DNA of 64,000 bases from Promicromonospora iranensis (GTDB lineage: Bacteria > Actinomycetota > Actinomycetes > Actinomycetales > Cellulomonadaceae), in the NCBI RefSeq assembly GCF_028994805.1, contig NZ_JAJQQP010000019.1, positions 1 through 64,000 of the forward strand, in the 5' to 3' direction. The notes under the pieces were generated by a model, which was given only the letters and a program-made list of their open reading frames with translations, ran no database searches and was not told where the DNA came from. The translations under genes and the position numbers were made by a program. This document shows, piece after piece, positions 6,696-20,677 of the stretch. Within the stretch, counting starts at the first letter, position 1, and every line of letters begins with the position of its first letter.

Positions 6696-6935
6696 TCAGC
6701 CGCCTGCGAAGGGGGGGAGCACGTCTATCGTGACGTCGTCCGGGATCTCTGCCTCGTCCGATGTCGCCCGGGCGCCCGCGACCAGCAGCGCGCACTTCGG
6801 CAGCACTGCGGCCAGGCCCGGGTGCGCGGCGGTCAGGCGGTCGCGGAGGGCGGCGACCGTCGTCGGGCGGTCGAGGCGTTCGGTGGCGACCCCGGCCGCC
6901 TCGCGGGCGCCGGCGAAGTAGCGGACGGTGATCAT
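6696..6935 (-). CDS. moaD: MoaD sulfur-carrier subunit of molybdopterin synthase
   Basis: This 79-residue ubiquitin-like protein has MITVRYFAGAREAAG at the N-terminus and the required diglycine tail (PPFAGG). The C-terminal glycine is thiocarboxylated and donates sulfur to precursor Z (cPMP) together with MoaE. Its ATG overlaps the moaC stop by 4 bp, so the pair is translationally coupled. No moaE or moaA is present in the window, so the pathway must be completed elsewhere. Confidence 0.92.
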   Translation of the reverse strand: MITVRYFAGAREAAGVATERLDRPTTVAALRDRLTAAHPGLAAVLPKCALLVAGARATSDEAEIPDDVTIDVLPPFAGG

Positions 6936-7402
6936 TCGGGACGCGTCCAGTCGCCCGACTTGCCGCCCGTCTTGCGCTCCAGACGTACGTCCGCGAGCGA
7001 GACCGACTTGTCGAGGCCCTTGACCATGTCGACCACGGCGAGGCCGGCCACGGCGACTGCGGTGAGCGCCTCCATCTCGACCCCCGTACGGTCCGCGGTG
7101 CGTACGGTCGCGGTGATGGCGACGCCGTCGTCGGTCACCGCGAGGTCCACTGCCGCGCCGTGCACGCCGATCACGTGCGCCAGCGGCAGCAGCTCCGGCG
7201 TCCTCTTGGCGGCGGCGATACCGGCTATGCGGGCGACCGCCAGCACGTCGCCCTTGGGCACCGCGCCGTCGCGCAGCGCCCGCACGACGTCGGGGCCGCA
7301 CCGGACGGTGCCCGATGCCGTGGCGGAGCGGATCGTCGGCTGCTTGGCGGTGACGTCGACCATGCGGGCCTGGCCGCGGTCGTCAAGGTGCGTGAAGCTC
7401 AC
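6932..7402 (-). CDS. moaC: MoaC cyclic pyranopterin monophosphate synthase
   Basis: This 156-residue enzyme acts at the first stage of molybdenum-cofactor synthesis, converting the MoaA product to cPMP. Recognisable blocks are FTHLDDRGQARMVDVTAK at the N-terminus, KRTPELLPLAHVIG around residue 67 and GVEMEALTAVAVAGLAVVDMVKGLDK, which holds active-site residues. The length fits the family (about 155-165). It is transcribed away from the nucleotide-sugar gene at 7580, with a 177-bp divergent promoter region between them. Confidence 0.95.
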   Translation of the reverse strand: MSFTHLDDRGQARMVDVTAKQPTIRSATASGTVRCGPDVVRALRDGAVPKGDVLAVARIAGIAAAKRTPELLPLAHVIGVHGAAVDLAVTDDGVAITATVRTADRTGVEMEALTAVAVAGLAVVDMVKGLDKSVSLADVRLERKTGGKSGDWTRPE

Positions 7403-7579
7403 GGGACCAGGGTGTCATGTCCCGAGCGCTGTCGGAGCGCCCCTCCGTGCTCGGCTGCGAGTGAACCGGCCCCGGTGCACCGTAGAACGGTGCGGTCGAG
7501 ACCAGGCTGCGGGAGCTTGGCGAGAGGACGATCCCATGCGCAGCGACAGCTGGACACCGTGCCCCGGCGAGGCCCCACG

Positions 7580-8542
7580 ATGAGGGTCGTCGTCACAGGT
7601 GGTGCCGGGTTCGTGGGCAGCAGGGTGTGCGAGGTACTCCTGGGTACCGGCGCCGAGGTGGTGTGTCTCGACAACCTCCTGACGGGCGCCCCGGACAACG
7701 TCGGCGCCCTGCGCGGGCACCCGGCGTTCCGCTTCGAGCAGTGCGACGTCACCGAGGGCTTCGACTCGCGTGCGGTCCGGGCCGCGCTGCGGCCCGGTGT
7801 CGACCTGGTGCTGCACCTCGCCTCCCCGGCGTCGCCCGTCGACTACCTGGAGCACCCGATAGAGACGCTCGACGCCGGCTCCCGTGGCACACGCGCCGCG
7901 CTCGACCTGGCGGGCGAGCACGGCGCGCGCCTCGTCCTCGCCTCGACCTCGGAGGTGTACGGCGATCCACAGGTTCATCCACAGACCGAGGAGTACTGGG
8001 GAAACGTGAGCAGCGTCGGCCCCCGGAGCGTCTATGACGAGTCCAAGCGGTTCGGTGAGGCACTGACCGCCGGGTACCGGCGCGCCCTCGGGACCGACAC
8101 GGGCATCGTCCGGATCTTCAACACGTACGGCCCCCGCATGCGGGAGCACGACGGACGCGTGGTACCTACCTTCATCCGGCAGGCGCTCGCGGACGAGCCG
8201 CTCACCGTCGCGGGTGACGGCAGCCAGACGCGGTCGCTCTGCTACGTCGACGACCTGGTGGAGGGCCTGCTGGCGTTCGCGCGCAGCGGGCACCCCGGCC
8301 CGATGAACCTCGGTAACCCGCACGAGCTCACGGTCCTTCAGATCGCCGAGGACGTGATCCGGGCGACGGGCTCGCGGTCACGGATCGAGTACGTCGAGCG
8401 GCCTGTCGACGACCCGGGGATGCGCTGCCCGGACATCACCCTGGCGCGGACGGAGCTGGGCTGGGAGCCGCGTGTCGGCTGGACGGACGGTCTGACCCGG
8501 ACGGTGTCGTGGTTCCGTTCCCGGTCGCAGGGGGCTGCGTGA
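7580..8542 (+). CDS. NAD-dependent nucleotide-sugar dehydratase/decarboxylase (UDP-xylose synthase type)
   Basis: This 320-residue extended short-chain dehydrogenase has the Rossmann motif VTGGAGFVGS at its N-terminus. The catalytic pair is in YDESK, and HLASPASPVDYLEHPIETL and FNTYGPRM are typical of the UDP-glucuronate decarboxylase (UXS) and dTDP-glucose 4,6-dehydratase group. The likely product is a UDP-xylose-type donor for the adjacent glycan genes, but the substrate is inferred. The ribosome site before ATG 7580 is weak, and an in-frame GTG at 7559 is an alternative start. Its last 107 bases overlap the 3' end of the convergent GT9 gene. Confidence 0.85.
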   Translation: MRVVVTGGAGFVGSRVCEVLLGTGAEVVCLDNLLTGAPDNVGALRGHPAFRFEQCDVTEGFDSRAVRAALRPGVDLVLHLASPASPVDYLEHPIETLDAGSRGTRAALDLAGEHGARLVLASTSEVYGDPQVHPQTEEYWGNVSSVGPRSVYDESKRFGEALTAGYRRALGTDTGIVRIFNTYGPRMREHDGRVVPTFIRQALADEPLTVAGDGSQTRSLCYVDDLVEGLLAFARSGHPGPMNLGNPHELTVLQIAEDVIRATGSRSRIEYVERPVDDPGMRCPDITLARTELGWEPRVGWTDGLTRTVSWFRSRSQGAA

Positions 8543-9524
8543 GCGCGGACTCGCACGCCGCGACCACCTCGTCCACCGGCACCTGAGCGAGCGCCGGGTC
8601 CAGCCGGCCCGCGTTCGGGTCCCGCGGTGGAGCGTCCGGGTCGCCGTGCCAGATGACGAGGTGCCGGGGCAGGTCGATCATCGGCCCCCACAGCGCGGGC
8701 GGCGTCGGCCCGAACAGGGTGACCGACGGCGTGCCGTACGCGGTCGCGAGGTGCGCCACGCCCGTGTCCCCGCTCACGAGCAGCCGGGCCGTGGACACCA
8801 GGTCGGCCAGCGCGGGCAGGCCGAGCCGGCCCGAGGCGTCGCGCACCGCGTCGCCCGCGTCCGCCTCGAGCCGCACCCGGGCGCAGAGGCCGCGCTCGGC
8901 CTCCGACCCGGTCAGGACGACGTCGTGACCCTGCGCCGCGAGCGCGTGCACGACCCGCGCCCAGCGGGCGGCGGGCCAGCGGCGGGCCTCGGCGGCGGCG
9001 CCCGGGTGGACGAGCACCGCACCCCGGCCACCCTGCTGCGCCCCGGTGCTCTCCTGCCCTCGTCCGCCCGGCGGGTCCAGCGGGCCGAGGCGGAGGTCCT
9101 CCGGCTCGCAGTGCCCGCCCACGCTCCGCACGAGCCGGCACCAGCGCAGCACCTCGTGCTCGTTCTCGTCCCAGTCGGGCCCGATGTGGCCGGCGTCGGT
9201 GTTGTCGAAGGCGAGCAGCGCGTCCGGCCGGGTCGCCTGCAGCACGCGGTGGCTCTCCGGCCCACGCCCGTGCAGGTTCACCGCGAGGCACCCGGGGGCG
9301 TCCTGGGCACCGCCCGGGCCCGCCCAGGGCCAGGGGAGCCGGGTCAGCCCCTGGGCCGGCAGGACCGCGTCCACTATCCCGTGGTCGGCCAGCCACTGGC
9401 CGAGGGGTCGGGGTGCGGCGAGCACCACCCGGTGTCCGGGCCATGCTCGCCGCACCCCACGGAGCGCGGCCACGCCGGTCAGCGCGTCGCCGAGCCCGAG
9501 CGCCCGCAGGACGAGGACGGTCAT
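8436..9524 (-). CDS. GT9 heptosyltransferase-family glycosyltransferase
   Basis: This 362-residue protein has the GT9 two-domain GT-B fold seen in LPS heptosyltransferases. It begins MTVLVLRALGLGDALTGVAALRG, and later shows [20 protein letters not shown] and the donor-site block LLVSGDTGVAHLATAYGTPSVTLFGP. The family usually transfers ADP-heptose, which fits the gmhA/hldE genes upstream in the same operon. It is the last gene, 25 bp after the SDR. The final 35 or so residues are low-complexity (Ser/Pro/Thr/Ala) and lie antisense to the end of the convergent UXS-like gene, so the stop codon may have drifted into its neighbour. Confidence 0.87.
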   Translation of the reverse strand: MTVLVLRALGLGDALTGVAALRGVRRAWPGHRVVLAAPRPLGQWLADHGIVDAVLPAQGLTRLPWPWAGPGGAQDAPGCLAVNLHGRGPESHRVLQATRPDALLAFDNTDAGHIGPDWDENEHEVLRWCRLVRSVGGHCEPEDLRLGPLDPPGGRGQESTGAQQGGRGAVLVHPGAAAEARRWPAARWARVVHALAAQGHDVVLTGSEAERGLCARVRLEADAGDAVRDASGRLGLPALADLVSTARLLVSGDTGVAHLATAYGTPSVTLFGPTPPALWGPMIDLPRHLVIWHGDPDAPPRDPNAGRLDPALAQVPVDEVVAACESALTQPPATGNGTTTPSGSDRPSSRHAAPSPAPSAPG

Positions 9525-9549
9525 GACGGGCTCCCGGTGGCCCGCCCGG

Positions 9550-10305
9550 TCACGGCCATGACGCCTCGCCCGACGCCATGACGAGCATCTCGCGGATCTC
9601 GCTGCCCGGCGGCTGCGTCAGCGCCGTCACCACGGCGGCGGCCGTGGCGGCCGGGTCGTTCAGGTCGGCATCCGGGCCCGGCTTGTACTGCTCGGTGCGG
9701 CCGTCGAAGAACGGCGTCCGCATGCCACCGGGGATCAGGCACGTCACGCCTACCCGGCCCGCGTACTCCGCGGCGAGGGCCTGGGTGAACCCGCGGATGC
9801 CCCACTTCGACGCGCAGTACGCCGTCGCGTCGCCGGCGCCGCGCAGGGCGAGCGTGGAGGCGACGGTCACCACCGTGCCGCGCCGCTCCTCGAGGTAGGG
9901 AAGCACGGCCCGGACCACTGCCACGGTGCCGAGCAGGTTGACGCGGATCACGCGCTCCCAGTCCTCCGCGGCGATGTCGAGCAGCGGGCCGCACGCGTCG
10001 ATCCCGGCGGCGGTCACCACCGCGTCGGGTGGTCCCACCTGCTCCACCAGCGAGTCGACGGCGGCCTGTGCCGCGCCCGGCTCGCCGAGGTCGGCGGCCG
10101 CGAACGGCACGTCGGCGGACGGCTCGGCCACGTCGAGGACCGCCGGGGTGCCGCCGGCGGCGGCCAGGACGTCGACGAGTGCCGCGCCGAGCCCGGACGA
10201 GCCGCCGGTGACGAACACCGTGCCGACCGACCGCGGCGCGAGCGGGGACGATGCGGGAGCGGGTGCGGTGGATGACTGGGTGGTGTCTGTGGTGGTTGCG
10301 GTCAT
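9550..10305 (-). CDS. Short-chain dehydrogenase/reductase in heptose operon
   Basis: This 251-residue classical SDR has the NAD(P) motif TGGSSGLG about residue 35 and the catalytic YCASK about residue 160, followed by PGGMRTPFF. A clear GGAGG sits before ATG 10305, and the start overlaps the hldE stop by 4 bp. Classical SDRs oxidise or reduce hydroxyl and keto groups. It is too short, and of the wrong SDR type, to be the extended-SDR HldD epimerase. It may modify the heptose or another sugar of the product glycan, but the substrate is unknown. Confidence 0.83.
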   Translation of the reverse strand: MTATTTDTTQSSTAPAPASSPLAPRSVGTVFVTGGSSGLGAALVDVLAAAGGTPAVLDVAEPSADVPFAAADLGEPGAAQAAVDSLVEQVGPPDAVVTAAGIDACGPLLDIAAEDWERVIRVNLLGTVAVVRAVLPYLEERRGTVVTVASTLALRGAGDATAYCASKWGIRGFTQALAAEYAGRVGVTCLIPGGMRTPFFDGRTEQYKPGPDADLNDPAATAAAVVTALTQPPGSEIREMLVMASGEASWP

Positions 10306-11837
10306 GATGACCTCCTCAGGGTCGACGGGATCGAGGACGACAGGGGTTCGGCCGCCCGGACCTGGCTGAAGAGCCCGGTCGTGGAGCGGCCCGGGAGATA
10401 GGGCAGGGTGACCACGCGCCCTCCGTAGGAGCGGACGACCGAGGCCTCGGGCAGGTCGGACCACGTGTAGTCGCCGCCCTTGGCCCAGATGTCGGGGCGG
10501 AGCGCGGACACGGCGGCGGACGGCTCGTCGTCGTCCATCACGACGGCGGCGTCGACGCTCGCGAGGCTCTCCAGGACGCGGAGCCGGTCGGCCAGGGGCA
10601 CCACCGGTCGCTCGGGCCCCTTGAGGTGCCGCACCGACCGGTCGGAGTTGACCAGCACCACCAGGTGCTCGCCCAGCTGCCGCGCGGCGTCGAGCATCGT
10701 GACGTGGCCGGCGTGCAGCAGGTCGAAGCACCCGCTCGTCGCGACCAGCACACCGCCCGCCGCACGCATCCGCGCGCCGAGCTCCTCCAGGGACGCCGGG
10801 CTGCTCTGCTCGACGGGCTGTCGAGCGGCCGTTCGGGCGCGGCGGAAGCCGTCGGCGCCCCCGGACGCGACCCAGGCGCTCGCGGCGACCACACCTTCCC
10901 GGACGGCGGTGGTGGCCTCGTCCCCGCGGGCCAGCCGGTCCGTCACCGTCGCGGCGAACCGGTCGCCGGCGCCGCAGGGGTCGGGACCGTGGGCGGGTTC
11001 GGTGGGCAGGTGCCGGATGACACCAGGGGCGTCGTCGGTGCTGCCGTCGTCGTCGGCCGGCCGGGTGGCGACGAAGGCGCCGCGGTCACCGGCGGTGACG
11101 CTGACCGCTCGCACGTCCCAGGCCCTGCGCAGCACGTCGGCCACCCCCGGGACCCCGGTGTCGGCTTCCGCGGGCGGCAGCGGAAGCTGCCGCGCCGCCC
11201 GTTCGGCCTCCGCGGCGTTCGGCGTGACGAGTGCCGCCCCGGGGACGGGCTCACCACCCCGCGGGTGCGGGTCCCAGACGAGCGGTACGCGCGCCGCCGA
11301 CTCGGCGAGGACCTCCCGCAGCAGCGGCTCCTGGGTGACACCGCCGCCGTAGTCGGCGACGAGGACGGCGTCGCAGCCCGTGAGGGCGTCGCGCACGCGT
11401 TCGGCGGTCGCCTGGTTCACGCCGAGCGGGGTGCCCGGTCCGCCGTCGTCGAGGCGGACCAGCCCCTGTCCGGAGCTGCGCACGCGCGTCTTGCGGCGGG
11501 TCGGACCGTCGTGGCGGAGCGGGACGACGGTGACGTCGGAGAGCTGTCGGCGCAGCTCCTGGCCGTCCGCGTCGTCGGCGATCGGTGCGACGAGGACGAC
11601 GTCGGCTCGCTGTGCGCACAGCAGGGCGGCGAGCCCCGCACCTCCTGGGCTCTGGCGGACCTCCGACACGTCGACGACGGGTACGGGGGCGTCGGGGGCC
11701 AGCCGGGTGACCGACCCGTCGACGTCGCGGTCGAGCAGGATGTCGCCGACGACGGCGACCCGCGGCCGGCCGCCGTCCCCGGGGGGTTCGGCCTGCTTGC
11801 GCGAGAGATCGCCGACGGGGGTGCCGTTCCCGGTCAT
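10302..11837 (-). CDS. hldE: HldE-like bifunctional heptose 7-phosphate kinase / heptose 1-phosphate adenylyltransferase
   Basis: This 511-residue two-domain enzyme makes ADP-heptose from heptose 7-phosphate, with a GmhB phosphatase acting between its two steps. Residues about 20-330 are a PfkB-type sugar kinase (VVGDILLDRDVDG, SPGGAGLAA, and DPCGAGDRFAA with the catalytic Asp). Residues about 355-505 are a nucleotidyltransferase with TSGCFDLLHAGHV (the HxGH site), RPDIWAKGGDYT and GRSTTGLF. The domain order and length match proteobacterial HldE (about 475 residues). It is coupled by 4-bp overlaps to gmhA upstream and the SDR downstream. This pathway normally serves lipopolysaccharide, which actinobacteria lack. 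Confidence 0.92.
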   Translation of the reverse strand: MTGNGTPVGDLSRKQAEPPGDGGRPRVAVVGDILLDRDVDGSVTRLAPDAPVPVVDVSEVRQSPGGAGLAALLCAQRADVVLVAPIADDADGQELRRQLSDVTVVPLRHDGPTRRKTRVRSSGQGLVRLDDGGPGTPLGVNQATAERVRDALTGCDAVLVADYGGGVTQEPLLREVLAESAARVPLVWDPHPRGGEPVPGAALVTPNAAEAERAARQLPLPPAEADTGVPGVADVLRRAWDVRAVSVTAGDRGAFVATRPADDDGSTDDAPGVIRHLPTEPAHGPDPCGAGDRFAATVTDRLARGDEATTAVREGVVAASAWVASGGADGFRRARTAARQPVEQSSPASLEELGARMRAAGGVLVATSGCFDLLHAGHVTMLDAARQLGEHLVVLVNSDRSVRHLKGPERPVVPLADRLRVLESLASVDAAVVMDDDEPSAAVSALRPDIWAKGGDYTWSDLPEASVVRSYGGRVVTLPYLPGRSTTGLFSQVRAAEPLSSSIPSTLRRSS

Positions 11838-12499
11838 GCGCTCGCCCCTGCCGTGCGCGACCTGGTCCGGCGGACCTCTGTGCCGCCGGCGGCGATGTGG
11901 GCGTCGAGCACCGCGCACAGGGTGTGTGCGACGACGAGGTGGATCTCCTGCACCGCGGACGTGGAGACCGACGGGACGGTGAGCGCGTCGTCGCACAGTG
12001 CCGCGAGCGGGTTGGGTGCGCGGCCGGTGAGCGCCCAGGTGGTGAGCCCCAGCTCGCGGGCCCGCCGGGCGGCGACGAGCACGTTGGCGCTCGCCCCGGA
12101 CGTCGACAGACAGAGCAGCACGTCGCCAGGCCTGCCGTGCGCCGCGACCTGCCGGGCGAACATCTCGTCCTGGCCGTAGTCGTTGACGATCGCGCTGAGG
12201 CTGGAGGTCTCGGCGTGCAGGGCGATCGCCGCGAGCGGGACACGTTCGCCCTCGAAGCGGCCGACAAGTTCCGCGGTCAGGTGCTGGGCCTCCGCGGCGC
12301 TGCCGCCGTTGCCTGCGACGAGCAGGCGCTGGCCGGAGACCAGCCGTTCGGCGAGGTCCTGTCCCCACGCCTCGATGCGGCCGAAGCTGGCGCTCAGGTG
12401 GTCGAGGCCGGTCAACAGGTCGGCACGGTGCTGGCGGAGCCAGGTCCGGCCGCTGGAGGAGGGCTGGAGGGCGGTCGGACGGACGGGCTGCGAACTCAT
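11834..12499 (-). CDS. gmhA: GmhA sedoheptulose 7-phosphate isomerase
   Basis: This 221-residue SIS-domain enzyme converts sedoheptulose 7-phosphate to D-glycero-D-manno-heptose 7-phosphate. Characteristic blocks are GNGGSAAEAQHLTAELVGRF about residue 65, SAIVNDYGQDEMFARQV, CLSTSGASANVL and the metal-site region QEIHLVVAHTLCAVLD near 185. The length is slightly above the usual 190-200 because of N- and C-terminal tails. It lies inside the nine-gene heptose operon, overlapping a GT4 gene upstream and hldE downstream by 4 bp each. Together with hldE and the fused GmhB domain at 15898 it completes a route to ADP-heptose. Confidence 0.93.
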   Translation of the reverse strand: MSSQPVRPTALQPSSSGRTWLRQHRADLLTGLDHLSASFGRIEAWGQDLAERLVSGQRLLVAGNGGSAAEAQHLTAELVGRFEGERVPLAAIALHAETSSLSAIVNDYGQDEMFARQVAAHGRPGDVLLCLSTSGASANVLVAARRARELGLTTWALTGRAPNPLAALCDDALTVPSVSTSAVQEIHLVVAHTLCAVLDAHIAAGGTEVRRTRSRTAGASA

Positions 12500-13794
12500 C
12501 GGTTACCTCCTGCAGAAACCAGCGGAGCGTCCGTCGCGGACCACTGCGGCAGCGGCGTGCGTGCGGACGAGGAACTGACGACCTCGGCGTAGGCCTCGGC
12601 CGTCTGCCGGGCCACGGAGACCCAGCCGTACTGGCGCTCCGCGCGGACGCGGGCGGCGGCACCGAGGCGGAGCCGGAACCGGCGGTCCGCCAGCCGCAGC
12701 AACGCGTCGGCGACGGCGGCGGGGTCACGCGGCGGCACGAGCAGTCCGGTGCGCTCGTGCGCCACCGTGTCGAGCATGCCCCCGACCGCCGACGCGATGA
12801 CCGGCAGACCGCACGCCGCGGCCTCCAGCGGGACTATCCCGAACGGCTCGTACCAGGGCGTGCACGCCACCACGTCGGCGCTGCGGAGCAGCTCCGGGAC
12901 CTCCTCGTGCGACACAGCGCCGAGGAACCGCACCCGGTCCGCGACGCCCAGCCGCTCGGCCTGGGCACGCAGGCGGCGCACCTCGGGGTCGCGGTCGAGC
13001 TCGCCGAGGGGCGGTCCGCCCGCGACCAGCAGCTCCACCGGGGGACCGTGCCTACCGAGCCGGGCGAGCGCCTCGACGACGGTCGCGACGCCCTTGCGCT
13101 CCACGAGCCTGCCCAGGGAGAGCAGGCGCAAGGGCCGGCCGTCGTCCGCGTGCTGCGCCCGGGCCGCGCCCGGCGTGAACACACCGAGGTCGACGCCGCA
13201 GGGCACCACGCGGACCCGGTCGTCCGACGCGCCCAGCTCCCGCAGCTCGCGCACCTCGTCCTGACATGTGGCGATCACCAGGTCCACATCCGCGCACAGG
13301 GACTTCTCCAGGGAGATCCGCGCGGTGGGGCTGGTGTCGGCGGCGCCCTGGTACCGGCGTTTGACCGAGCCCAGCGCGTGGAACGTCTGGACCACCGGCA
13401 CGGCGGGCAGGTGCCCGTCGTCCGATCGGCGGGTGGCTCGCAGCGCGGCCAGGCCCGACATCCAGAAGTGGGCGTGCAGCACGTCCGGCCGCACCCCGGG
13501 GTCGGTGAAGCGGGCCGCGAGGTCGTCGCCGAACTGGTTCATCCAGCGCAGCAGCTCGTCCTTCGGCAGCCGTTCGGGCGGGCCCGCGTCGACGTGCACG
13601 ACGTCGACGCCTTCCGTGAGCGGTACCCGCTCCGGGACCGCCGGGTCGTCCCGCCGCGTGTAGACGTCGACGGTGTGACCGTCCGCGGCGAGCCGCTGGG
13701 CCAGCGCCGCGACGTGGACGTTCTGTCCACCGGCGTCCGCTTCGCCGAGTACGGCGAGCGGGCTGGCGTGCTCCGAGATCATGCCGATCTTCAT
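12496..13794 (-). CDS. GT4 glycosyltransferase (MshA-like)
   Basis: This 432-residue GT-B retaining glycosyltransferase opens MKIGMISEHASPL and continues GEADAGGQNVHVAALAQRLAADGH, the acceptor-loop pattern seen in MshA and sucrose-phosphate synthase relatives. The donor domain carries LLSLGRLVERKGVATVVEAL and the nucleotide-sugar motif EPFGIVPLEAAACGLPVIAS (E-x7-E). It is cytosolic or membrane-peripheral and should add one sugar of the glycan built by this operon. It overlaps the genes on both sides by 4 bp. Donor and acceptor are not predictable from sequence. Confidence 0.88.
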   Translation of the reverse strand: MKIGMISEHASPLAVLGEADAGGQNVHVAALAQRLAADGHTVDVYTRRDDPAVPERVPLTEGVDVVHVDAGPPERLPKDELLRWMNQFGDDLAARFTDPGVRPDVLHAHFWMSGLAALRATRRSDDGHLPAVPVVQTFHALGSVKRRYQGAADTSPTARISLEKSLCADVDLVIATCQDEVRELRELGASDDRVRVVPCGVDLGVFTPGAARAQHADDGRPLRLLSLGRLVERKGVATVVEALARLGRHGPPVELLVAGGPPLGELDRDPEVRRLRAQAERLGVADRVRFLGAVSHEEVPELLRSADVVACTPWYEPFGIVPLEAAACGLPVIASAVGGMLDTVAHERTGLLVPPRDPAAVADALLRLADRRFRLRLGAAARVRAERQYGWVSVARQTAEAYAEVVSSSSARTPLPQWSATDAPLVSAGGNR

Positions 13795-14798
13795 GGCGAC
13801 ACCTCCTGTGTCAGCAGCGTGGTCCAGCGGTCGAGGAACCGGTCGAGGGGGTAGTGGGTGAGGACGTGCTCGCGGGCGACCTTGCCGTGGGCGGCGGCCT
13901 CCGACGGGTCGGCGAGCCAGCGGCGGGCTACCGCCGCGAGCTCGTCCGGGTCGGCGCTGAGCACGCCGGCCTCGGGCGGGACCGCCGCATAGGCGGCGGT
14001 GACCGGCAGGGCCAGGACGGGCAGGCCGAGGGCCATGGCCTCCAGGAGCGCGAGCCCCAGACTCGTCCACCGGTAGGGGTGCAGGTAGACGCGGGCTCCC
14101 GCCAGGCGGTCGTGCAGCTCCGCCTGCGGCAGGTCGTAGAGGCGGTCGGCGGCTCCCGCCGCCGTCGGGCCCAGGGGGGAGAGGTGCTCGGCCAGCAGCG
14201 CGGTCCCCATCCCGTACACCTCGGCCGGCGCCTGGCGGGCGACCTGCAGCAGCACGTCCGTGCCCGCGGCTCGCCACCGGCGCACCGGTTCGTTCACGAC
14301 CGCCGCGACGCGCTCGCGCTCTCCCGTGTAGCGGTGGCCCGGGTCGGGGATGCCGTGCTCGATCACCGCGGTGCGCGCCGGGCCGGTGTCCCACATGAGG
14401 GCGTTGAACTGGGTCACGTGCACGATGGGGACGTGCCCCTCGGCCGCGACGTCGACGTCGGCCAGGGGATGCCGTGTGGCGGCGGCGGGCCCGCCCGGGG
14501 CGTCGTGCTCCAGATACACGGTCGGCACGTCCCGCCCCGCGCGGCGTCCGGTCCACTCCCGCAGGAGCCGGGCCTCGTGCGGCCGCTGGAGCACGACGGC
14601 GTCCACCCCCTCGTCGTCGAACGCCCGGCGGAGCTCCGCGGGTCCCAGCTCCCGCACCGACGCCGGCCAGTCCCAGGTCTGCGCCCGTCCGCGCCCGTCG
14701 GCGGGCCGGTCGGGGAGCACCGGCACCAGGTACTCGTGCTCGCCCTGGACGAAGGCCGTGGTCCACGAACCGTGCACGTGCCACAGGAGGACTCTCAT
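13791..14798 (-). CDS. GT4-like glycosyltransferase
   Basis: This 335-residue glycosyltransferase has a GT-B layout with MRVLLWHVHGSWTTAFVQGEHEYLVPV at the N-terminus. The second half contains the donor-binding stretch YLHPYRWTSLGLALLEAMALGLPVLALP, with the E-x7-type motif partly altered (SLGLALLEA). A GGAGG-like site precedes ATG 14798, and the gene overlaps both neighbours by 4 bp. This protein type is common in actinobacterial heptose clusters, as far as I recall, but it has no assigned reaction here. Confidence 0.8.
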   Translation of the reverse strand: MRVLLWHVHGSWTTAFVQGEHEYLVPVLPDRPADGRGRAQTWDWPASVRELGPAELRRAFDDEGVDAVVLQRPHEARLLREWTGRRAGRDVPTVYLEHDAPGGPAAATRHPLADVDVAAEGHVPIVHVTQFNALMWDTGPARTAVIEHGIPDPGHRYTGERERVAAVVNEPVRRWRAAGTDVLLQVARQAPAEVYGMGTALLAEHLSPLGPTAAGAADRLYDLPQAELHDRLAGARVYLHPYRWTSLGLALLEAMALGLPVLALPVTAAYAAVPPEAGVLSADPDELAAVARRWLADPSEAAAHGKVAREHVLTHYPLDRFLDRWTTLLTQEVSP

Positions 14799-15901
14799 GA
14801 GGACCACCCCTCGGCGTGGCTCCCGCCGGTCGGGGCCGGCGCGCGGGGCGGTTGGCGCGTGAGCCGCGTGACGGCGTCGGACACCTGTTCCGGCGTGACC
14901 GATGCGAGGCAGGGGTGGCCCGGCACCGGGCAGGTGCGGGCCCGCGTGCCGCGGCACACCGCGCCCTGGTCGCCGAGCACGAGCCGGGGCACCCCGTAGG
15001 GGGCCCACCGGTCCGCGGGGACGACAGGAGCGAACAGGCTGACCACCGGCGTGCCGACCGCGGCGGCCAGGTGGGCGGGACCGGTGTTCCCGACGACCGC
15101 GCAGGCGGCCGACTCGAGGACGGCGCCCAGCTGGGCCAGGTCGGTCAGCCCGCCCAGGTCGGTGGCGTGGCCGCCGGCCACGTAGGCGGTGAGGTCGCGT
15201 TCCGAGGGGGACCCGGTCACGAGAACGTCCCAACCATCACGTGCGAGGCGCGCCGCGATGGCCCGGGCGTGCTCGGGCAGCGGCGCCCGGGCGGGTACCG
15301 ATGCCCCCGGGTGGAGCACCACCGAACGCTGCCGCCAGGTGCCCCCGACGCCGAGGGTGTGCTCGGCCGGCTCCGGCACGGCAGGCAGCGGACGGCGGAC
15401 GGCGAGCAGCCCGTCGTCCTCCACCGGCAGCCGGGCCCCGGCCCGCTCGGCGAGGTCGAGGGCTGCCTCTACCTCGTGCAGTCCCGGCGGGCGCTTGTGC
15501 CGGACGTCGAGCAGCGAGCCGGGGTAGTCCTCGCTCACCGCGACGATCCTGCGCACGCCACCGAGGCGGGCGAGCAGTGCCATCGGGAGCGGTGACTGGT
15601 GGAACGACGTGAAGATCACCGCGAGCTGGTAGCGGCGTGCGACCAGGCCCGCAACGAGGTCGAGCACTGCTTCGGCCGAGACCGGAGGCGGCTCGGTGCC
15701 GGACCACGGCGCGTCGAACCGGAGGATCTCGGTCACACCGGGCAACAGCTCGGCCGCCTGCAGGCCGGAGCTGGAGACCAGGAGGTCCACCTGGTCGTAG
15801 GTAGCGGCCAGCGCGCGCACGGCGGGGCCGGTCAGGAGCAGGTCCCCGTCGCTGTCGAGCCGGATCGCCAGCACGCGGACAGAGCGTTCCGCGGAGGTCA
15901 T
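14795..15901 (-). CDS. Second GT9 heptosyltransferase-family glycosyltransferase
   Basis: This 368-residue GT9 protein is a distant paralog of the one at 8436. It starts VRVLAIRLDSDGDLLLTGPAVRALAATY and later has VVLHPGASVPARAPLPEH and CAVVGNTGPAHLAAAVGTPVVSLFAPVVP, the family's donor-site block. A cysteine pair, CRGTRARTCPVPGHPC, lies near the C-terminus as in many heptosyltransferases. Two GT9 enzymes in one operon suggest at least two heptose, or heptose-like, transfers per glycan unit. It overlaps the GT2-HAD gene (upstream) and the GT4-like gene (downstream) by 4 bp. Confidence 0.88.
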   Translation of the reverse strand: MTSAERSVRVLAIRLDSDGDLLLTGPAVRALAATYDQVDLLVSSSGLQAAELLPGVTEILRFDAPWSGTEPPPVSAEAVLDLVAGLVARRYQLAVIFTSFHQSPLPMALLARLGGVRRIVAVSEDYPGSLLDVRHKRPPGLHEVEAALDLAERAGARLPVEDDGLLAVRRPLPAVPEPAEHTLGVGGTWRQRSVVLHPGASVPARAPLPEHARAIAARLARDGWDVLVTGSPSERDLTAYVAGGHATDLGGLTDLAQLGAVLESAACAVVGNTGPAHLAAAVGTPVVSLFAPVVPADRWAPYGVPRLVLGDQGAVCRGTRARTCPVPGHPCLASVTPEQVSDAVTRLTRQPPRAPAPTGGSHAEGWSS

Positions 15902-17454
15902 AGCAGCATCACCACCTCATCGAGAGTGGCGGCCACGACGGGAGCGGCGGACAGCTCCTCCCGTCTGGTCACCTCGGTCGGCACGAGGACGCCGCGTGCA
16001 CCGGACGCCACGGCGGCGCCCACGTCCGAGCCGATGTCTCCGACCACCGCGCACTCCGCCGGGAGCACGCCGAGCACCGCCGCCGCCCGGAGCACGAGGC
16101 CCGGATCCGGCTTGCGGCACGTGCACTCGTCCTCGGGCCGGTGCGGGCAGCGCTGCCAGGTGTCGAACGGGCCCAGCAGCCGGCGGACCCGCTCGTCCAC
16201 GGCGTCCACCTGGGCGCTCGTGAGCAGCCCGCGCCCGATGGCCGACTGGTTCGAGACCACGCCGACCCGTACGCCGCCGGCCCGTAGCCCGTCCAGCACC
16301 CGCCGGGCGCCGGGCATCGGCACGACCGCGTCGGGGTCGCCGTTGTAGGGGACGTCGCGGACGAGCGTGCCGTCCCGGTCGAACAGCACGGCGCGAACGG
16401 GCGGCGGCCAGGCAGGCACCCGCCCGCCGAGCCCTCCTCGCCACGTCCACGCACCGCGCGCGCGGTGGGCGACCGCAAAGAACGGGATCAGCGTGCTCGT
16501 CACGAGCATGCGGCGCAGCTCGGGGCCGTAGCCCTCGTCGCCGGGCCGTGGTCCGGGGCCGATCCGCTGCGCGGCGAACGCCGCGGTGAGGCCCGCCCAC
16601 GCGGTCCCGGCGAGGGCGGCGATCGTGCCGGCCGCGCGAGGCGCCCGCGTACCGGGCACGGCGGCGGCCACACCACCACCGAGCGCCGTCAGACCGGCCG
16701 CGACCGTCGCCACGTGCCAGGGCAGCCGGCCCCGGCCGGCTCCGGTGAGCCGGCGCCAGTCGCGGCCGTGCAGAGTGCGCAGCAGCGCGTCGTCCGCGTT
16801 GCCGGCCTGGGCCCGGACGCTTGCCAGGTTCCCGGCCGGCCGGACGGGATGTTCCACGAACCGGACGCCGTGCTCGAGGTCCCAGCCGGCGTCGCGGACG
16901 CGCAGCGCGAGGTCGGCGTCCTCCCGGTACGCGCGGGGGAAGCGTTCGTCGAAGCCGCTCACCGCCTCCAGCGCGGCCCGGCGGTAGACCATGTCGGCGG
17001 TCGCCCAGGCCGCCGTCTCCAGTCCGGCGGTGTTGCGTTCGAGGTCGGTCGGGGGCCGGTGGTTCGGCAGCGGCACCACGATCCGGCCCTGTACACCGGC
17101 GACGTCGGGGCCGGCCGCCGTCAGGTCCTGCTCCAGGGCGGCGGCCCAGCGCTCCGGCACCACCACGTCGTCGTCCAGGAAGGCCACCCACTCCGTCCGG
17201 ACGGTGCGCCACCCGGCGTTGCGGGCGGCGGCGGGGCCGCGCCCGCCGGTGCGGACCACCCGCACGCCAGGGACCGGATCGGGTCCGAGGTCGAGGGGAG
17301 CGTTCCCGCCGTCGTCCGGGAACGCCCGGTCGTCGACCACCACGACGTCGAGCGGCCGAGGGCCGCGCGCACAGGCGACGCGCACCGAGTCCAGCAGCGC
17401 GCGCAGCTGCGGACGGCCGATCGTCGGGACGACTATCGAGTACGACGGAGTCAC
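15898..17454 (-). CDS. GT2 glycosyltransferase fused to GmhB-type HAD phosphatase
   Basis: This 518-residue protein joins two enzymes. Residues about 1-210 are a GT2 transferase (SIVVPTIGRPQLRALLDSV, FLDDDVVVPERW with the DxD-type motif, FDERFPRAYREDADLALR). A hydrophobic middle (about 245-305) could span the membrane. Residues about 350-518 are a HAD phosphatase with FDRDGTLV (nucleophile D359, acid/base D361), SNQSAIGRG, the zinc loop CPHRPEDECTCRKPDPG and GDIGSDV. That combination matches GmhB, heptose 1,7-bisphosphate 7-phosphatase, the step between the two HldE activities. The GTG start overlaps the carbamoyltransferase stop (GTGA). The fusion is unusual. Confidence 0.87.
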   Translation of the reverse strand: MTPSYSIVVPTIGRPQLRALLDSVRVACARGPRPLDVVVVDDRAFPDDGGNAPLDLGPDPVPGVRVVRTGGRGPAAARNAGWRTVRTEWVAFLDDDVVVPERWAAALEQDLTAAGPDVAGVQGRIVVPLPNHRPPTDLERNTAGLETAAWATADMVYRRAALEAVSGFDERFPRAYREDADLALRVRDAGWDLEHGVRFVEHPVRPAGNLASVRAQAGNADDALLRTLHGRDWRRLTGAGRGRLPWHVATVAAGLTALGGGVAAAVPGTRAPRAAGTIAALAGTAWAGLTAAFAAQRIGPGPRPGDEGYGPELRRMLVTSTLIPFFAVAHRARGAWTWRGGLGGRVPAWPPPVRAVLFDRDGTLVRDVPYNGDPDAVVPMPGARRVLDGLRAGGVRVGVVSNQSAIGRGLLTSAQVDAVDERVRRLLGPFDTWQRCPHRPEDECTCRKPDPGLVLRAAAVLGVLPAECAVVGDIGSDVGAAVASGARGVLVPTEVTRREELSAAPVVAATLDEVVMLL

Positions 17455-19139
17455 GCGGCACCTCCGGACTGCCGCTCGGACAGGAAGAGGTCCGCGCGCC
17501 GGACGAGGTGGGGACCCAGGACCAGGAGGTCGACGGGCGCGGAGCCGAAGAGCTCGAGCGCGTCGCGGGGGGTGTCCACCATGGGGCGGCCCGCGGTGTT
17601 GAGGCTGGTGTTCACCACCACCGGCAGCCCGGTGCGCGCCCGGAACGCCCTGAGCATCGACTGGAGGCGCGGCTGCGCGTCGTCCACCGTCTGGATGCGG
17701 GCGGTGCCGTCCACGTGGACGGTCGCGGGGATCCGGTCGCGCCATGCGGGGGCGACGTCGTGGACGAACAGCATGTAGGGGCTGGGGACGGGACCGCCCG
17801 AGAAGATCTCGGGGGCGTCCTCCAGGAGCACCATCGGCGCGACCGGGCGGAACTGCTCACGGCCCTTGACCACGTTCAGGCGCTCCGTGTTGGCCCGCGT
17901 ACCGGGGTGCGCGAGCAGCGAGCGCTGGCCGAGGGCCCGCGGCCCGAACTCGGAGCGGCCGTCGAACCAGGCGACGATCCCGTCGTCGGCCAGCACGCCG
18001 GCCACCTGGTCCGGGAGGTCGGCGGGGGTCGTGAACGGCACACGCGCCGTGCGCAGCGCGTCCGCCAGCTCGTCGTCGGACCACTCGCGGCCCAGTGCCG
18101 CCGAAGCCATGGGCACGGTGGGCACGCCCGCCTCCGCCGTGAGCTGCAGGGCCGCGCCGAGAGCCGTGCCCGAGTCACCCGCGGCGGGCTGGACCCAGAC
18201 GTGCTCGAACGGGGTCTCCCGCCAGATCCGGGAGTTGGCCACGCAGTTCAGCGCAGTGCCGCCGGCCAGGGTCAGCGCGGTGTCGCCGGTCCGCTCGTGC
18301 AGCGCCGTGGCGAGCTCGACGAGCAGCTCCTCCAGCCGCGCCTGGACTGACGCCGCGAGGTCCGCCTGGTCGGGAGGCAGGCCGCCTGCGCCGCTGGGTT
18401 CCTGGATGGTGCCGGGCTCCGCCGGAGCCGCCCATCGCGACCAGTCGGGGGCCTCGGCCACGAACCCGCCCTCCGGCGTGGTCCGGAGCAGCTCCCGCAG
18501 CTCGGGCAGGAACCGCGGCCGGCCGTACGACGCGAGCGCCATCACCTTGTACTCGTCGCTGGACCGCAGGAAGCCGAGGTGCTCGGTCAGGGACTCGTAC
18601 ACGAGGCCGAGGGAGTGCGGCAGCTCCTGGCTCGCCAGCACCTCGAGCTGCCCGCCGTCGTACCGGCCCGCCAGGTAGGAGGACCGCTCGCCGCGGCCGT
18701 CGAGGGACATGACGCTGCACGTGGAGAACGGGGAGGCGAGCGCCGCCGACGCGGCGTGCGCCACCTCGTGCGGCACGAAGCGGACGGCGGCCGGGCTCAG
18801 CCCGGGCAGCGCGGTGGCGATGAACTGCGGTACCCGCTCGGCGTACAGCTGCCGCAGCCAGTCCCACGGGTCGGGCAGGCTCATCTCGTCGGACGGCTTG
18901 GCGAGGGCCGGGTCGAACGAGTACGCGACGGCGTCCAGGTCCTCCGGCGCGAGCCCGCCGACGTCGAGACACCACCGCATCGCCTGCTCCGGTAGCTCCC
19001 AGGCCGCGAACGGGACGGGACGCTTGCCGTGCTTGCGCCGGGTGAACCGCTCTTCCTCGGCTGCGGCAAGCACGTGGCCGTCCACGACGAGGGCGGCCGA
19101 CGGGTCATGGAAGAGAGCATTCACGCCAAGAACTCGCAC
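17451..19139 (-). CDS. NodU/CmcH/TobZ-family carbamoyltransferase
   Basis: This 562-residue O-carbamoyltransferase should add a carbamoyl group from carbamoyl phosphate to a sugar hydroxyl through a carbamoyl-AMP intermediate. The N-terminal ASKHA-like domain has LGVNALFHDPSAAL and HEVAHAASAALASPF, with LAGGTALNCVANSRI near the middle. The C-terminal part has WFDGRSEFGPRALGQRSLLAHP and VVNTSLNTAGRPMVDTP. GTG 19139 is preferred because GGAGG lies just upstream; a GTG four codons earlier is the alternative. As first gene of the nine-gene operon, it suggests a carbamoylated, heptose-containing surface glycan. Confidence 0.9.
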   Translation of the reverse strand: MRVLGVNALFHDPSAALVVDGHVLAAAEEERFTRRKHGKRPVPFAAWELPEQAMRWCLDVGGLAPEDLDAVAYSFDPALAKPSDEMSLPDPWDWLRQLYAERVPQFIATALPGLSPAAVRFVPHEVAHAASAALASPFSTCSVMSLDGRGERSSYLAGRYDGGQLEVLASQELPHSLGLVYESLTEHLGFLRSSDEYKVMALASYGRPRFLPELRELLRTTPEGGFVAEAPDWSRWAAPAEPGTIQEPSGAGGLPPDQADLAASVQARLEELLVELATALHERTGDTALTLAGGTALNCVANSRIWRETPFEHVWVQPAAGDSGTALGAALQLTAEAGVPTVPMASAALGREWSDDELADALRTARVPFTTPADLPDQVAGVLADDGIVAWFDGRSEFGPRALGQRSLLAHPGTRANTERLNVVKGREQFRPVAPMVLLEDAPEIFSGGPVPSPYMLFVHDVAPAWRDRIPATVHVDGTARIQTVDDAQPRLQSMLRAFRARTGLPVVVNTSLNTAGRPMVDTPRDALELFGSAPVDLLVLGPHLVRRADLFLSERQSGGAA

Positions 19140-19255: not shown

Positions 19256-20677
19256 TCAGTGACGTGCGAGGTCCTCGGTGGCGGGGCCTTCGAGCAGCGT
19301 CCCGTCCGGCCCGAACCGCGAGCCGTGCACGGGGCAGTCCCAGGACTGCTCCTGGTCGTTCCACCGCACGACGCCGCCGAGGTGCGGGCAGATCCGGGAG
19401 ACACGCGGGGCGCCTGGCCGCTCTCCGGAGGGACGGGTGGCCGCGCAGGCCCAGTCCCTGGTCTGCACGCCGAACGTGGCGGCGGTGCTCGTTCTCGGCG
19501 CTGGTCGGCGGGCCCACGGTTCGAACGTGGGGCCCCACTCGACGGGATCCCCGAGGATGCGGCCGGCGAGCGCGAGGCCGGCCGCCGCACCGTTCGTGAG
19601 GCCCCACTTGGCGTAGCCGGTGGCCACCAGCACGCGGTCGTCACCCGGCACGGCCGGCCCGACGAGCGGTAGGTCGGTGTCGCTGGTGTAGTCCTGGGCC
19701 GCCCACGCGTGCCGGGGAAGGTCGACCGGGAAGTGGACACGGGTCCACTCGTCGAGCACGGCCAGCCGCCGGGCAGGGTCCCGCTCCCGTCCGACGGTAT
19801 AGCCCTCGCCGCCCACCATGAGCAGCCCGTCGGCCATCCGGAGCGAGCGGACCGGGGATCCGGCGGTGATCGACATGGTCTCGGTGAAGCCCGGCGGCAG
19901 CGCCGTCGGGTCGGTGACCTCCCACGTGGTGAGCAGGCTCCGGCCGGCCTCCAGCCGAAGGAACAGGCCACCCAGGCGGCCGGGCGGGGTGCCGGTGGCC
20001 AGCACCACCCGATCGGCGAGCACGGTGCCGTGGGTGGTGCGCAGCGCGACGCCGGAGCGGGCCCGACGCACCTGCCGGACCCGGACGCCGTCGTACACCG
20101 GCACGCCCCGGGACCGGAGGCGGGCGCGCAACGCGGAGAGCATGCGCAACGGGTCGACCTGGGCCTGTCCCGGCAGGCGCACCGCGCCGTAGGACCGCAC
20201 GGGATACGGCGGGTCCTCCTCCCACTGGGCAGCGAGTCCCTGGCGCGCGCAGGTCGCGAGCACGGCGTCGACGTCGGCCACCTCCTCGGGGGTGGACGCG
20301 ACGGTCAGGTCGTCGCGGTTCTCGACCGGCACGTTCAGGTCGTCGAGAGTGCGGCGCAGCCACCCGAGGCCCGCGAAGTTGGCCGCGAGGTAGTCCTGCA
20401 CCACCTCGTCGCCGTACCGCGCGATGCGCGCGAGCCGGGTGCCCTGCAGCACCGAGAGCTTGCCCGTCGAACGGGCGGTGGTGGTGGCGCGTGCGCCGTC
20501 GGCGTCGAGCACCACGACGTGGGCGCCGCCGTCGGCGAGCAGCTGAGCCGTCACGACACCGGTGAGCCCTGCGCCCACCACGGCCACGTCGGTGCGTAGC
20601 GGGCCGGGGGCCATGATCTCTGGTGTACCCGCGCCGGTGTCTCCCGGGTCCGTCGCGGCAAAGGGTGTCTCGCTCAC
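19256..20677 (-). CDS. FAD-dependent oxidoreductase with C-terminal Rieske domain
   Basis: This 473-residue protein has a DAO-type FAD domain with the dinucleotide motif VAVVGAGLTGVVTAQLLADGG from about residue 30 and ATGTPPGRLGG later. The last 80 or so residues are a Rieske [2Fe-2S] domain with CPHLGG and CPVHGSRF as cluster ligands. This domain order is typical of glycine-oxidase-like proteins fused to Rieske domains in many bacteria. The substrate is unknown. GTG 20677 has GGAGGTGCACC in front. It reads the same way as the heptose operon but is separated by 116 bp, so a separate unit is likely. Confidence 0.87.
   Translation of the reverse strand: MSETPFAATDPGDTGAGTPEIMAPGPLRTDVAVVGAGLTGVVTAQLLADGGAHVVVLDADGARATTTARSTGKLSVLQGTRLARIARYGDEVVQDYLAANFAGLGWLRRTLDDLNVPVENRDDLTVASTPEEVADVDAVLATCARQGLAAQWEEDPPYPVRSYGAVRLPGQAQVDPLRMLSALRARLRSRGVPVYDGVRVRQVRRARSGVALRTTHGTVLADRVVLATGTPPGRLGGLFLRLEAGRSLLTTWEVTDPTALPPGFTETMSITAGSPVRSLRMADGLLMVGGEGYTVGRERDPARRLAVLDEWTRVHFPVDLPRHAWAAQDYTSDTDLPLVGPAVPGDDRVLVATGYAKWGLTNGAAAGLALAGRILGDPVEWGPTFEPWARRPAPRTSTAATFGVQTRDWACAATRPSGERPGAPRVSRICPHLGGVVRWNDQEQSWDCPVHGSRFGPDGTLLEGPATEDLARH

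What the first reader, a model, noticed from the sequence alone, without database searches (positions are those of the whole stretch)
8436..19139. Complete ADP-heptose pathway with glycan assembly genes in a Gram-positive operon
gmhA, hldE and a GmhB domain supply all steps from sedoheptulose 7-phosphate to ADP-D-glycero-D-manno-heptose. They lie in one nine-gene unit with eight consecutive 4-bp or short junctions, alongside two GT9 heptosyltransferase-like enzymes, two GT4, one GT2, an SDR and a carbamoyltransferase. Actinobacteria have no lipopolysaccharide, so the product is probably an uncharacterised carbamoylated heptose-containing wall glycopolymer or glycoconjugate. No HldD epimerase is present, so the D-glycero form is the likely donor. 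ADP-heptose is also the ALPK1 agonist in mammals, which adds biological interest.
Basis: partly seen in the sequence, partly recalled or inferred. Interest (0 to 1): 0.8.

Follow-up and report, generated by a model that had tools for sequence, protein, structure and literature searches.

The report
Actinobacterial cwg cell-wall heptose operon
This high-GC Gram-positive bacterium carries a version of a gene cluster known in Streptomyces as the "cell wall glycan" (cwg) operon, which looks built to make a surface sugar containing heptose, xylose and carbamoyl groups, although the papers we could reach do not say what the sugar is.

Summary
Nine same-strand genes lie at 8436-19139, with seven 4-bp overlaps and one 25-bp gap. 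GmhA, bifunctional HldE and a Zn-type GmhB domain (fused to a GT2) are present, with active-site motifs nearly invariant in relatives.

(1) The convergent gene 7574-8542 is UDP-glucuronate decarboxylase-like (UDP-xylose former; 302 bits to human UXS1); in many relatives it is codirectional with the cluster. (2) The locus is an ortholog of the cwg operon (cwgA-L, SCO6179-6190) of Streptomyces coelicolor, a vancomycin-induced sigma-E target.

The cluster's carbamoyltransferase subfamily is in 34 of 396 phylum genomes and 104 of 295 genomes of a Streptomyces-like genus. HldD is in 1 of 396, a genome without hldE.

Best reading: an envelope-stress operon making ADP-D-glycero-heptose and UDP-xylose for a carbamoylated envelope glycan. 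Gene content and orthology are well supported; the sugar's configuration, product structure, location and acceptor are inferred. Verdict: new member of a known, chemically uncharacterised kind.

The parts
17451..19139 (-). NodU/TobZ-type O-carbamoyltransferase (cwgB ortholog by position); GTG start at 19139 (or 19151)
   Evidence: PF16861 206 bits, PF02543 177 bits; a separate subfamily at >=941 bits in 34 of 396 phylum genomes, next best 615 bits; solved relatives 7xb6, TobZ, GdmN; 67% identity to the G643 cwg copy
15898..17454 (-). GT2 glycosyltransferase fused to a GmhB-like D,D-heptose-1,7-bisphosphate 7-phosphatase (positions of cwgC + cwgD; two genes in G643)
   Evidence: GmhB part best matches solved D,D-heptose 1,7-bisphosphate phosphatases 4pnh and 2gmw; DxD 48/48 and Zn CxH...CxC 47-48/48 in fused members, window included; the separate G643 gene is also GmhB-like, 106 bits against cut-off 178
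14795..15901 (-). GT9a heptosyltransferase-family enzyme (cwgE position)
   Evidence: PF01075 64 bits; weak match to WaaF 1psw, E 1e-4; 59% identity to the G643 cwg copy
13791..14798 (-). GT4a glycosyltransferase (cwgF position)
   Evidence: PF13692 44 bits; 58% identity to the G643 cwg copy
12496..13794 (-). GT4b glycosyltransferase, MshA-like but below the MshA cut-off (cwgG position)
   Evidence: PF00534 138 bits; TIGR03449 263.6 bits against cut-off 462.5; 54% identity to the G643 cwg copy
11834..12499 (-). gmhA, sedoheptulose 7-phosphate isomerase (cwgH position)
   Evidence: PF13580 88 bits; solved phosphoheptose isomerase 1tk9 E 2.5e-43; motif residues H73, E77, Q184, H192 each 60/60
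10302..11837 (-). hldE, bifunctional heptose 7-phosphate kinase / heptose 1-phosphate adenylyltransferase (cwgI position)
   Evidence: solved relatives 5x9q (putative cytidylyltransferase) and 4e84 (heptose 7-phosphate kinase); GAGD 69/69, HxGH His/Gly/His 69/69
9550..10305 (-). classical short-chain dehydrogenase (SDR), absent from the G643 operon; role unknown
   Evidence: PF00106 131 bits; S150, Y163, K167 each 54/54; present in 56 of 83 cluster loci
8436..9524 (-). GT9b heptosyltransferase-family enzyme (cwgJ position)
   Evidence: PF01075 101 bits; WaaC-type 2gt1/2h1f E about 8e-11; N-terminal Asp 69/70
7574..8542 (+).
   Evidence: human UXS1 4gll 302 bits, next family 124 bits; 64% identity to the G643 cwg copy; E127, Y154, K158, R220 each 41/41; codirectional with and next to the CTase gene in 22 of 83 cluster loci

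Best explanation
The locus is a cwg (cell wall glycan) operon. GmhA isomerises sedoheptulose 7-phosphate to a heptose 7-phosphate; the HldE kinase domain adds the 1-phosphate; the GmhB domain removes the 7-phosphate; the HldE nucleotidyltransferase domain makes ADP-D-glycero-heptose, most likely D-manno, with no C-6 epimerisation because HldD is absent. The adjacent UXS-like enzyme turns UDP-glucuronate (made by a nucleotide-sugar dehydrogenase encoded elsewhere in this genome) into UDP-xylose. The two GT9 enzymes are the likely users of ADP-heptose; GT2 and the two GT4 enzymes add the other sugars, and the NodU/TobZ-type enzyme carbamoylates a sugar hydroxyl. The product is most likely a heptose- and xylose-containing, carbamoylated envelope glycan or glycolipid induced by cell-wall stress. 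Shown here: gene content, active-site conservation, orthology to cwg, distribution, absence of HldD. From papers: sigma-E control and vancomycin induction of the S. coelicolor operon. Inferred: each enzyme's substrate, the order of sugars, the acceptor, export and the final structure.
For: Gene content and active-site motifs. Orthology to cwg: the exact 29-bp S. coelicolor cwg promoter printed in PMC6767563 occurs with 0 mismatches in 1 of 295 genomes of the genus searched and with 1-3 mismatches in 7 more. In the exact case it ends 147 bp before the UXS gene, as published. The genes below it are UXS, CTase, GT2, GmhB, GT9, GT4, GT4, gmhA, hldE, GT9, GT2, GT2, twelve in all; the ten shared with the window are 48-67% identical. 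This matches the published names cwgH phosphoheptose isomerase and cwgI bifunctional synthase/transferase (PMC5839063). cwg is vancomycin-induced and partly sigma-E dependent (PMC6767563). A nucleotide-sugar (UDP-glucose) dehydrogenase gene is in the fetched stretch in 8 of 83 cluster loci (two members checked), and two of that family are over cut-off in the own genome, which fits a UDP-xylose role. A weak polysaccharide pyruvyltransferase-like gene accompanies 14 of 83. HldD in 1 of 396 genomes, not an hldE-positive one.
Against: Among the gene families that recur with the cluster within the fetched stretches (about 10 kb or less on a side) I recognised no flippase, polymerase or ligase (mostly judged by eye; the commonest ones checked are GT2, aldehyde dehydrogenase, pyruvyltransferase-like and nucleotide-sugar dehydrogenase), so export and anchoring are unexplained. 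GmhA, HldE and GmhB are below their NCBIfam cut-offs, so substrates may differ; the UXS-like protein's best NCBIfam models, all sub-threshold, are dTDP-glucose dehydratase and LegB, not a xylose synthase. PMC5839063 labels cwgD a 'putative dehydratase', whereas I find a GmhB-like HAD domain at that position. A pattern scan of 416 bp upstream of the window CTase start found no AAC-N15..19-NGTC site, so stress control is not shown here. The cluster is patchy (34 of 396; 104 of 295), so the product is dispensable. A TM-like stretch was found in only 23 of 87 GT2 members. 5 of 34 genomes with the CTase subfamily had no HldE hit at E <= 1e-20.
Confidence: 0.66

Rival explanations
1. The operon makes a diffusible specialised metabolite (a carbamoylated oligosaccharide or glycosylated small molecule) rather than an envelope glycan.
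For: TobZ, GdmN and novobiocin-type carbamoyltransferases are among the solved relatives of the CTase; no flippase, polymerase or ligase was recognised among recurring neighbours; patchy distribution; one reduced plasmid-borne copy lies beside an MFS transporter gene. Bleomycin sugar genes are recalled to include similar families (from memory, not tested).
Against: Much the same layout across many families of one phylum, with no scaffold-type gene recognised as recurring beside it; sigma-E and vancomycin control in S. coelicolor; two Streptomyces loci that looked reduced (L140, L142) are one half of a set whose other half is elsewhere in the same genome.
Confidence: 0.15
2. The heptose is not D-glycero-D-manno: the GmhA homologue makes D-glycero-D-altro-heptose 7-phosphate, as HygP does, or the enzymes handle another sugar phosphate.
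For: [quoted passage not shown] GmhA, HldE and GmhB here fall below their NCBIfam cut-offs.
Against: GmhA is closest to solved phosphoheptose isomerases (1tk9, 2.5e-43) with the metal/catalytic motif residues invariant; the GmhB part is closest to solved D,D-heptose 1,7-bisphosphate phosphatases. No comparison with HygP itself was made.
Confidence: 0.25
3. The glycan decorates a protein, a lipid carrier or a low-molecular-weight cofactor rather than forming a wall-attached polymer.
For: Five glycosyltransferases without a recognised polymerase or ligase suggest a short oligosaccharide; GT4b is MshA-like, a family that glycosylates inositol phosphate; the GT2 domain matches an undecaprenol-linked-glycan glucosyltransferase (9jma) at E 7e-8.
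Against: None of these matches is close; generic LCP ligases or flippases encoded elsewhere could serve and were not surveyed; no acceptor gene was recognised near the cluster.
Confidence: 0.3

Closest known systems
cwg operon (cwgA-L, SCO6179-6190) of Streptomyces coelicolor
   Different: In the window GT2 and GmhB are fused, an SDR is inserted before the last GT9, UXS is convergent at the other end, cwgK/L-type GT2 genes are not adjacent (not sought elsewhere in the genome), and no sigma-E-like promoter was found
ADP-L-glycero-D-manno-heptose pathway of Gram-negative LPS (GmhA, HldE, GmhB, HldD)
   Same: The first three proteins (four steps) and GT9 heptosyltransferase-family enzymes
   Different: No HldD, so the D-glycero form is expected; xylose and carbamoyl functions added; no lipid A or LPS expected in an actinobacterium (general knowledge, not searched)
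Actinobacterial NDP-heptose synthetases (Tang et al. 2022) and the septacidin / hygromycin B heptose pathways (Tang et al. 2018); titles seen in a reference list only
   Same: Heptose activation from sedoheptulose 7-phosphate in actinobacteria
   Different: By title, tridomain synthetases and natural-product pathways; here HldE is two-domain, GmhB is fused to a GT2, and the relative is an envelope-stress operon. The papers were not held, so the comparison rests on titles.
Rhodococcus ruber gmhD (GDP-heptose) and its surface polysaccharide
   Same: A heptose-linked gene needed for an actinobacterial surface polysaccharide (PMC12298843 and PMC12786566 passages)
   Different: GDP-, not ADP-heptose; whether that strain has a cwg cluster was not tested

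Membership tests
cwg (cell wall glycan) operon | Gene set and order UXS-CTase-GT2-GmhB-GT9-GT4-GT4-gmhA-hldE-GT9(-GT2-GT2) | tested here: met
   Window matches the L215 (G643) copy from CTase to the last GT9, except for an inserted SDR and the GT2-GmhB fusion; UXS is moved and the two final GT2 are not adjacent
cwg (cell wall glycan) operon | Identity of the reference: sequence below the published S. coelicolor cwg promoter | tested here: met
cwg (cell wall glycan) operon | Sigma-E-type promoter upstream of the window operon | tested here: not met
   No AAC-N15..19-NGTC in 416 bp upstream of 19139; a different order of bacteria, so the regulator may differ
cwg (cell wall glycan) operon | Induction by cell-wall antibiotics | not testable with these tools
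   Known for S. coelicolor only (PMC6767563 passages)
ADP-heptose biosynthesis | GmhA with His/Glu and Gln/His active-site motifs | tested here: met
   H73, E77, Q184, H192 each 60/60; which residues are catalytic is recalled
ADP-heptose biosynthesis | Bifunctional HldE: PfkB GAGD and nucleotidyltransferase HxGH | tested here: met
   69/69 each
ADP-heptose biosynthesis | GmhB with DxD and Zn-binding CxH...CxC | tested here: met
   48/48 and 47-48/48
ADP-heptose biosynthesis | Scores above the curated NCBIfam cut-offs for GmhA, HldE, GmhB | tested here: not met
   162.8 v 209.5, 254.6 v 521, 98.1 v 178 bits; in the phylum sample 46 of 396 genomes do pass the HldE nucleotidyltransferase cut-off
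ADP-heptose biosynthesis | Product is ADP-D-glycero-D-manno-heptose | not testable with these tools
   Needs enzymology; a D-altro product is possible
LPS L,D-heptose pathway | HldD C-6 epimerase | tested here: not met
   Own genome best 113.9 v cut-off 274.6 bits; 1 of 396 phylum genomes
UDP-xylose synthase (UXS) | Glu / YxxxK / Arg active-site set and closest similarity to UXS | tested here: met
   302 bits to human UXS1 v 124 for the next family among solved structures; E127, Y154, K158, R220 each 41/41; residue roles recalled; no NCBIfam model passes its cut-off
GT9 heptosyltransferase | Transfers heptose from ADP-heptose | not testable with these tools
   Family membership met (PF01075); conserved N-terminal Asp 78/78 (GT9a) and 69/70 (GT9b); donor unknown

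The most novel reading that the evidence does not exclude
[quoted passage not shown] Its carriers would therefore hold the ALPK1 agonist ADP-D,D-heptose without having LPS.
Probability: 0.35. Interest if true: 0.75.

Novelty: new member of a known kind. Interest (0 to 1): 0.45.

Why it matters
The cwg operon has been a named target of the Streptomyces cell-envelope stress response since 2002, yet the passages reached here describe its product only as a putative cell wall glycan. Recognising the full set (an ADP-heptose arm, a UDP-xylose arm, carbamoylation, two GT9) and its recurrence across the phylum makes the product directly testable: it predicts heptose, xylose and carbamate in one fraction of any cwg-positive strain. 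If ADP-heptose is present, some Gram-positive bacteria would carry a molecule described in the papers seen here as a Gram-negative danger signal.

Tried and rejected
Rejected: "nine genes, uncharacterised unit". The UXS gene belongs to it and the operon is cwg. Rejected: the epimerase-like neighbour as an HldD substitute. It is UXS-like (302 v 124 bits) and scores 63-64 bits with the HldD model. Rejected: the reduced six-gene clusters L140/L142 as a separate natural-product cluster. The remaining genes sit elsewhere in the same genomes. The similar plasmid copy (L186) was not followed to its chromosome. Rejected: the solo carbamoyltransferases of Geodermatophilaceae as loss of the pathway. I asked for 13 of the 14 such loci; 12 genomes were held and 12 of 12 have an HldE match, one of them cut by a contig end. 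All 6 stretches fetched hold GT2-GmhB, GT9a, GT4a, GT4b, gmhA, hldE and GT9b in a row, and 5 of 6 also UXS. Inconclusive: TM prediction for GT2 (23 of 87); correlation of gene distances, 0.29-0.71 with no housekeeping control. The first all-ORF clustering was swamped by antisense ORFs and was replaced. Literature searches that gave nothing on the cwg product itself: 20 of 66 listed; 15 of 41 listed; 5 of 11,401 listed. The bleomycin-sugar comparison comes from memory and was not tested. No structure prediction was run.

Counting notes: the 83 cluster loci (window included) are those with at least 7 of 10 families out of 117 analysed (36 unnamed, 80 named, the window). The 34 dropped are 7 unnamed stretches, 14 Geodermatophilaceae loci with a solo CTase, L140 and L142 (split sets), and 11 named loci that, appear cut by a contig end. 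One of the 83 (L075) has no CTase and one (L074) a shuffled order. My gene finder misses some gmhA genes that tblastn sees (L077, L078), so 65 of 83 for gmhA is a lower bound. UXS in 47 of 83 is also a lower bound, since many stretches end soon after GT9b. The 36 unnamed stretches came from 65 places listed. The 104 of 295 includes two partial matches.

Full report
What is there. The window belongs to a 5.84-Mb genome and is 73% GC; the nearest named relative found is Promicromonospora thailandica (84% in the carbamoyltransferase). Nine minus-strand genes at 8436-19139 form one tightly packed unit: carbamoyltransferase, GT2-GmhB fusion, GT9a, GT4a, GT4b, gmhA, hldE, SDR, GT9b. Seven junctions are 4-bp overlaps and the last is a 25-bp gap. 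Pfam and NCBIfam confirm the families.

Is it an ADP-heptose pathway? By content and active sites, yes. GmhA is closest to solved phosphoheptose isomerases, the GmhB part to solved D,D-heptose 1,7-bisphosphate phosphatases, and HldE to a solved heptose 7-phosphate kinase and a "putative cytidylyltransferase". In alignments of cluster members, window included, the motif residues are almost invariant: GmhA H73, E77, Q184 and H192 60/60; HldE GAGD and HxGH 69/69; GmhB DxD 48/48 and its zinc motif 47-48/48. Against this, all three score under the curated NCBIfam cut-offs, so the exact sugar is not settled. HygP (recalled as the GmhA-type enzyme of hygromycin B biosynthesis) gives the D-altro epimer with the same partners (PMC10948575 passages). 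HldD is absent: the own genome's best hit is 113.9 bits against a cut-off of 274.6, and 1 of 396 phylum genomes has a match at E <= 1e-60, a genome not among the 53 of 396 with an HldE-type nucleotidyltransferase at E <= 1e-20.

The tenth gene. The plus-strand ORF at 7574-8542, convergent with GT9b and overlapping it by 107 bp, is a UXS-type UDP-glucuronate decarboxylase: 302 bits to human UXS1 against 124 for the next family among solved structures, with E127, Y154, K158 and R220 41/41 among cluster copies. No NCBIfam model passes its cut-off for it; the best are dTDP-glucose dehydratase and LegB. It was found in the fetched stretch of 47 of 83 cluster loci: directly upstream of and codirectional with the carbamoyltransferase in 22, directly after GT9b in 21. 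A nucleotide-sugar dehydrogenase gene of the UDP-glucose dehydrogenase family (two members checked; one 406 bits with TIGR03026) is in the stretch in 8 of 83, and the own genome has two over cut-off elsewhere. So the locus plausibly supplies two donors, ADP-heptose and UDP-xylose.

It is the cwg operon. A recalled locus range (SCO6179-6190) led to papers naming this the 12-gene cwg operon of S. [quoted passage not shown] cwgH is annotated as phosphoheptose isomerase and cwgI as bifunctional synthase/transferase (PMC5839063 table rows). I tested this by sequence. The 29-base cwg promoter printed in PMC6767563 was sought in 295 genomes of a Streptomyces-like genus: 8 match with up to 3 mismatches and one of these, G643, exactly; the reversed control pattern shows 0 in the listed rows. 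In G643 it ends 147 bp before a UXS gene, the published distance, and the divergent SCO6178 promoter is also exact. Downstream come UXS, CTase, GT2, GmhB, GT9, GT4, GT4, gmhA, hldE, GT9 and two further GT2, twelve genes in all, the ten shared ones at 48-67% identity to the window proteins. One published label disagrees: cwgD is a "putative dehydratase" in PMC5839063, while the gene at that place in G643 is GmhB-like (106 bits against cut-off 178). The window's version differs: GT2 and GmhB are fused, an SDR is inserted, UXS has moved, the last two GT2 are not adjacent, and no sigma-E-like site was found within 416 bp upstream.

Distribution. The carbamoyltransferase forms a distinct subfamily: 34 of 396 phylum genomes score at least 941 bits, the next best 615. 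29 of those 34 also appear in the HldE list; the exceptions are G013, G193, G200, G269 and G381. In the genus searched, 104 of 295 genomes have it at E <= 1e-200. Of 117 loci analysed, 83 hold at least 7 of the 10 families, window included. 53 of these keep CTase-GT2-GT9a-GT4a-GT4b-(gmhA)-hldE unbroken, and 27 match the window through SDR and GT9b. Named carriers include Promicromonospora, Cellulomonas, Georgenia, Kocuria, Nocardioides, Kribbella, Streptomyces, Nonomuraea and Actinomadura. Modestobacter, Blastococcus and Geodermatophilus carry the same set with the CTase gene elsewhere in the genome (6 stretches read).

How it most likely works. GmhA, the HldE kinase, GmhB and the HldE nucleotidyltransferase make ADP-D-glycero-heptose; UXS makes UDP-xylose; the GT9 enzymes are the best candidates for heptosyl transfer; GT2 and the GT4 enzymes add the remaining sugars; the NodU/TobZ-type enzyme carbamoylates. 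The envelope setting rests on the S. coelicolor regulation data. Acceptor, sugar order, export and final structure are inferred or unknown. Among recurring neighbours I recognised no flippase, polymerase or ligase (mostly by eye; commonest ones checked).

What is known in print. In the library searched, 'cwg' terms gave 167 papers, of which 40 were listed and three were relevant (PMC5839063, PMC3902916, PMC13011467; many of the rest were about a machine-learning method whose name begins alike). The listing is not complete: the sigma-E regulon paper PMC6767563, found by locus tags, was not in it. I saw passages of these papers, not whole texts. In those passages none defines the product, and 'heptose' as the start of a word did not occur in the main text of the three in which I looked for it (PMC6767563, PMC5839063, PMC13011467), although "phosphoheptose isomerase" does in PMC5839063. 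The founding paper (Hong et al. [quoted passage not shown] 2022) were not held. NDP-heptose in actinobacteria is therefore not new in itself, and either paper may already say more than I could see.

Verdict. The finding is real and coherent but not a new kind of system: it is an ortholog of a known, chemically uncharacterised stress operon. The added value is the second donor arm, the phylum-level spread and the absence of HldD, which together give direct predictions for the identity of the cwg glycan.

Noticed in passing
window 1723-7402: Beside the cwg locus lie molybdate-type ABC transporter genes (fused permease-ATPase, binding protein) and molybdenum-cofactor genes (MoCF domain, ThiS/MoaD-like, MoaC). 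The relocated solo CTase of Geodermatophilaceae loci (L110, L112, L116 and others) and the cluster of L088 also sit near related transporter and cofactor gene families; cause unknown.
   Followed up: partly
G000:C8:157186-160819 (own genome): A second carbamoyltransferase (357.6 bits with the cwg model) lies about 1 kb from an epimerase that is the genome's best, sub-threshold HldD hit; probably another glycan locus.
   Followed up: no
L225, L226 with L140, L142: In two Streptomyces genomes the cwg set is split into two loci: UXS-CTase-GT2-GT4b-gmhA-hldE, and GT2-GmhB-GT9a-GT4a-GT9b-GT2-GT2.
   Followed up: yes
L186 (Streptomyces fungicidicus plasmid p1, NZ_CP023408.1): A six-gene UXS-CTase-GT2-GT4b-gmhA-hldE cluster lies on a 927-kb plasmid beside an MFS transporter gene; related carbamoyltransferases are on other plasmid records (H10, H11).
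   Followed up: partly
window 19256-20677: FAD-dependent oxidoreductase (DAO) gene directly upstream of the operon on the same strand, with a weak C-terminal Rieske match (23.5 bits against cut-off 20.3).
   Followed up: partly
L215 1385-2176 and L046 13910-14983 (family f15): A gene near the Streptomyces-type cwg operon, seen in 14 of 83 cluster loci, weakly similar to polysaccharide pyruvyl transferase (33-38 bits against cut-off 25.3).
   Followed up: partly
window 631-1704: N-acylglucosamine 2-epimerase family gene (PF07221, 339 bits).
   Followed up: no
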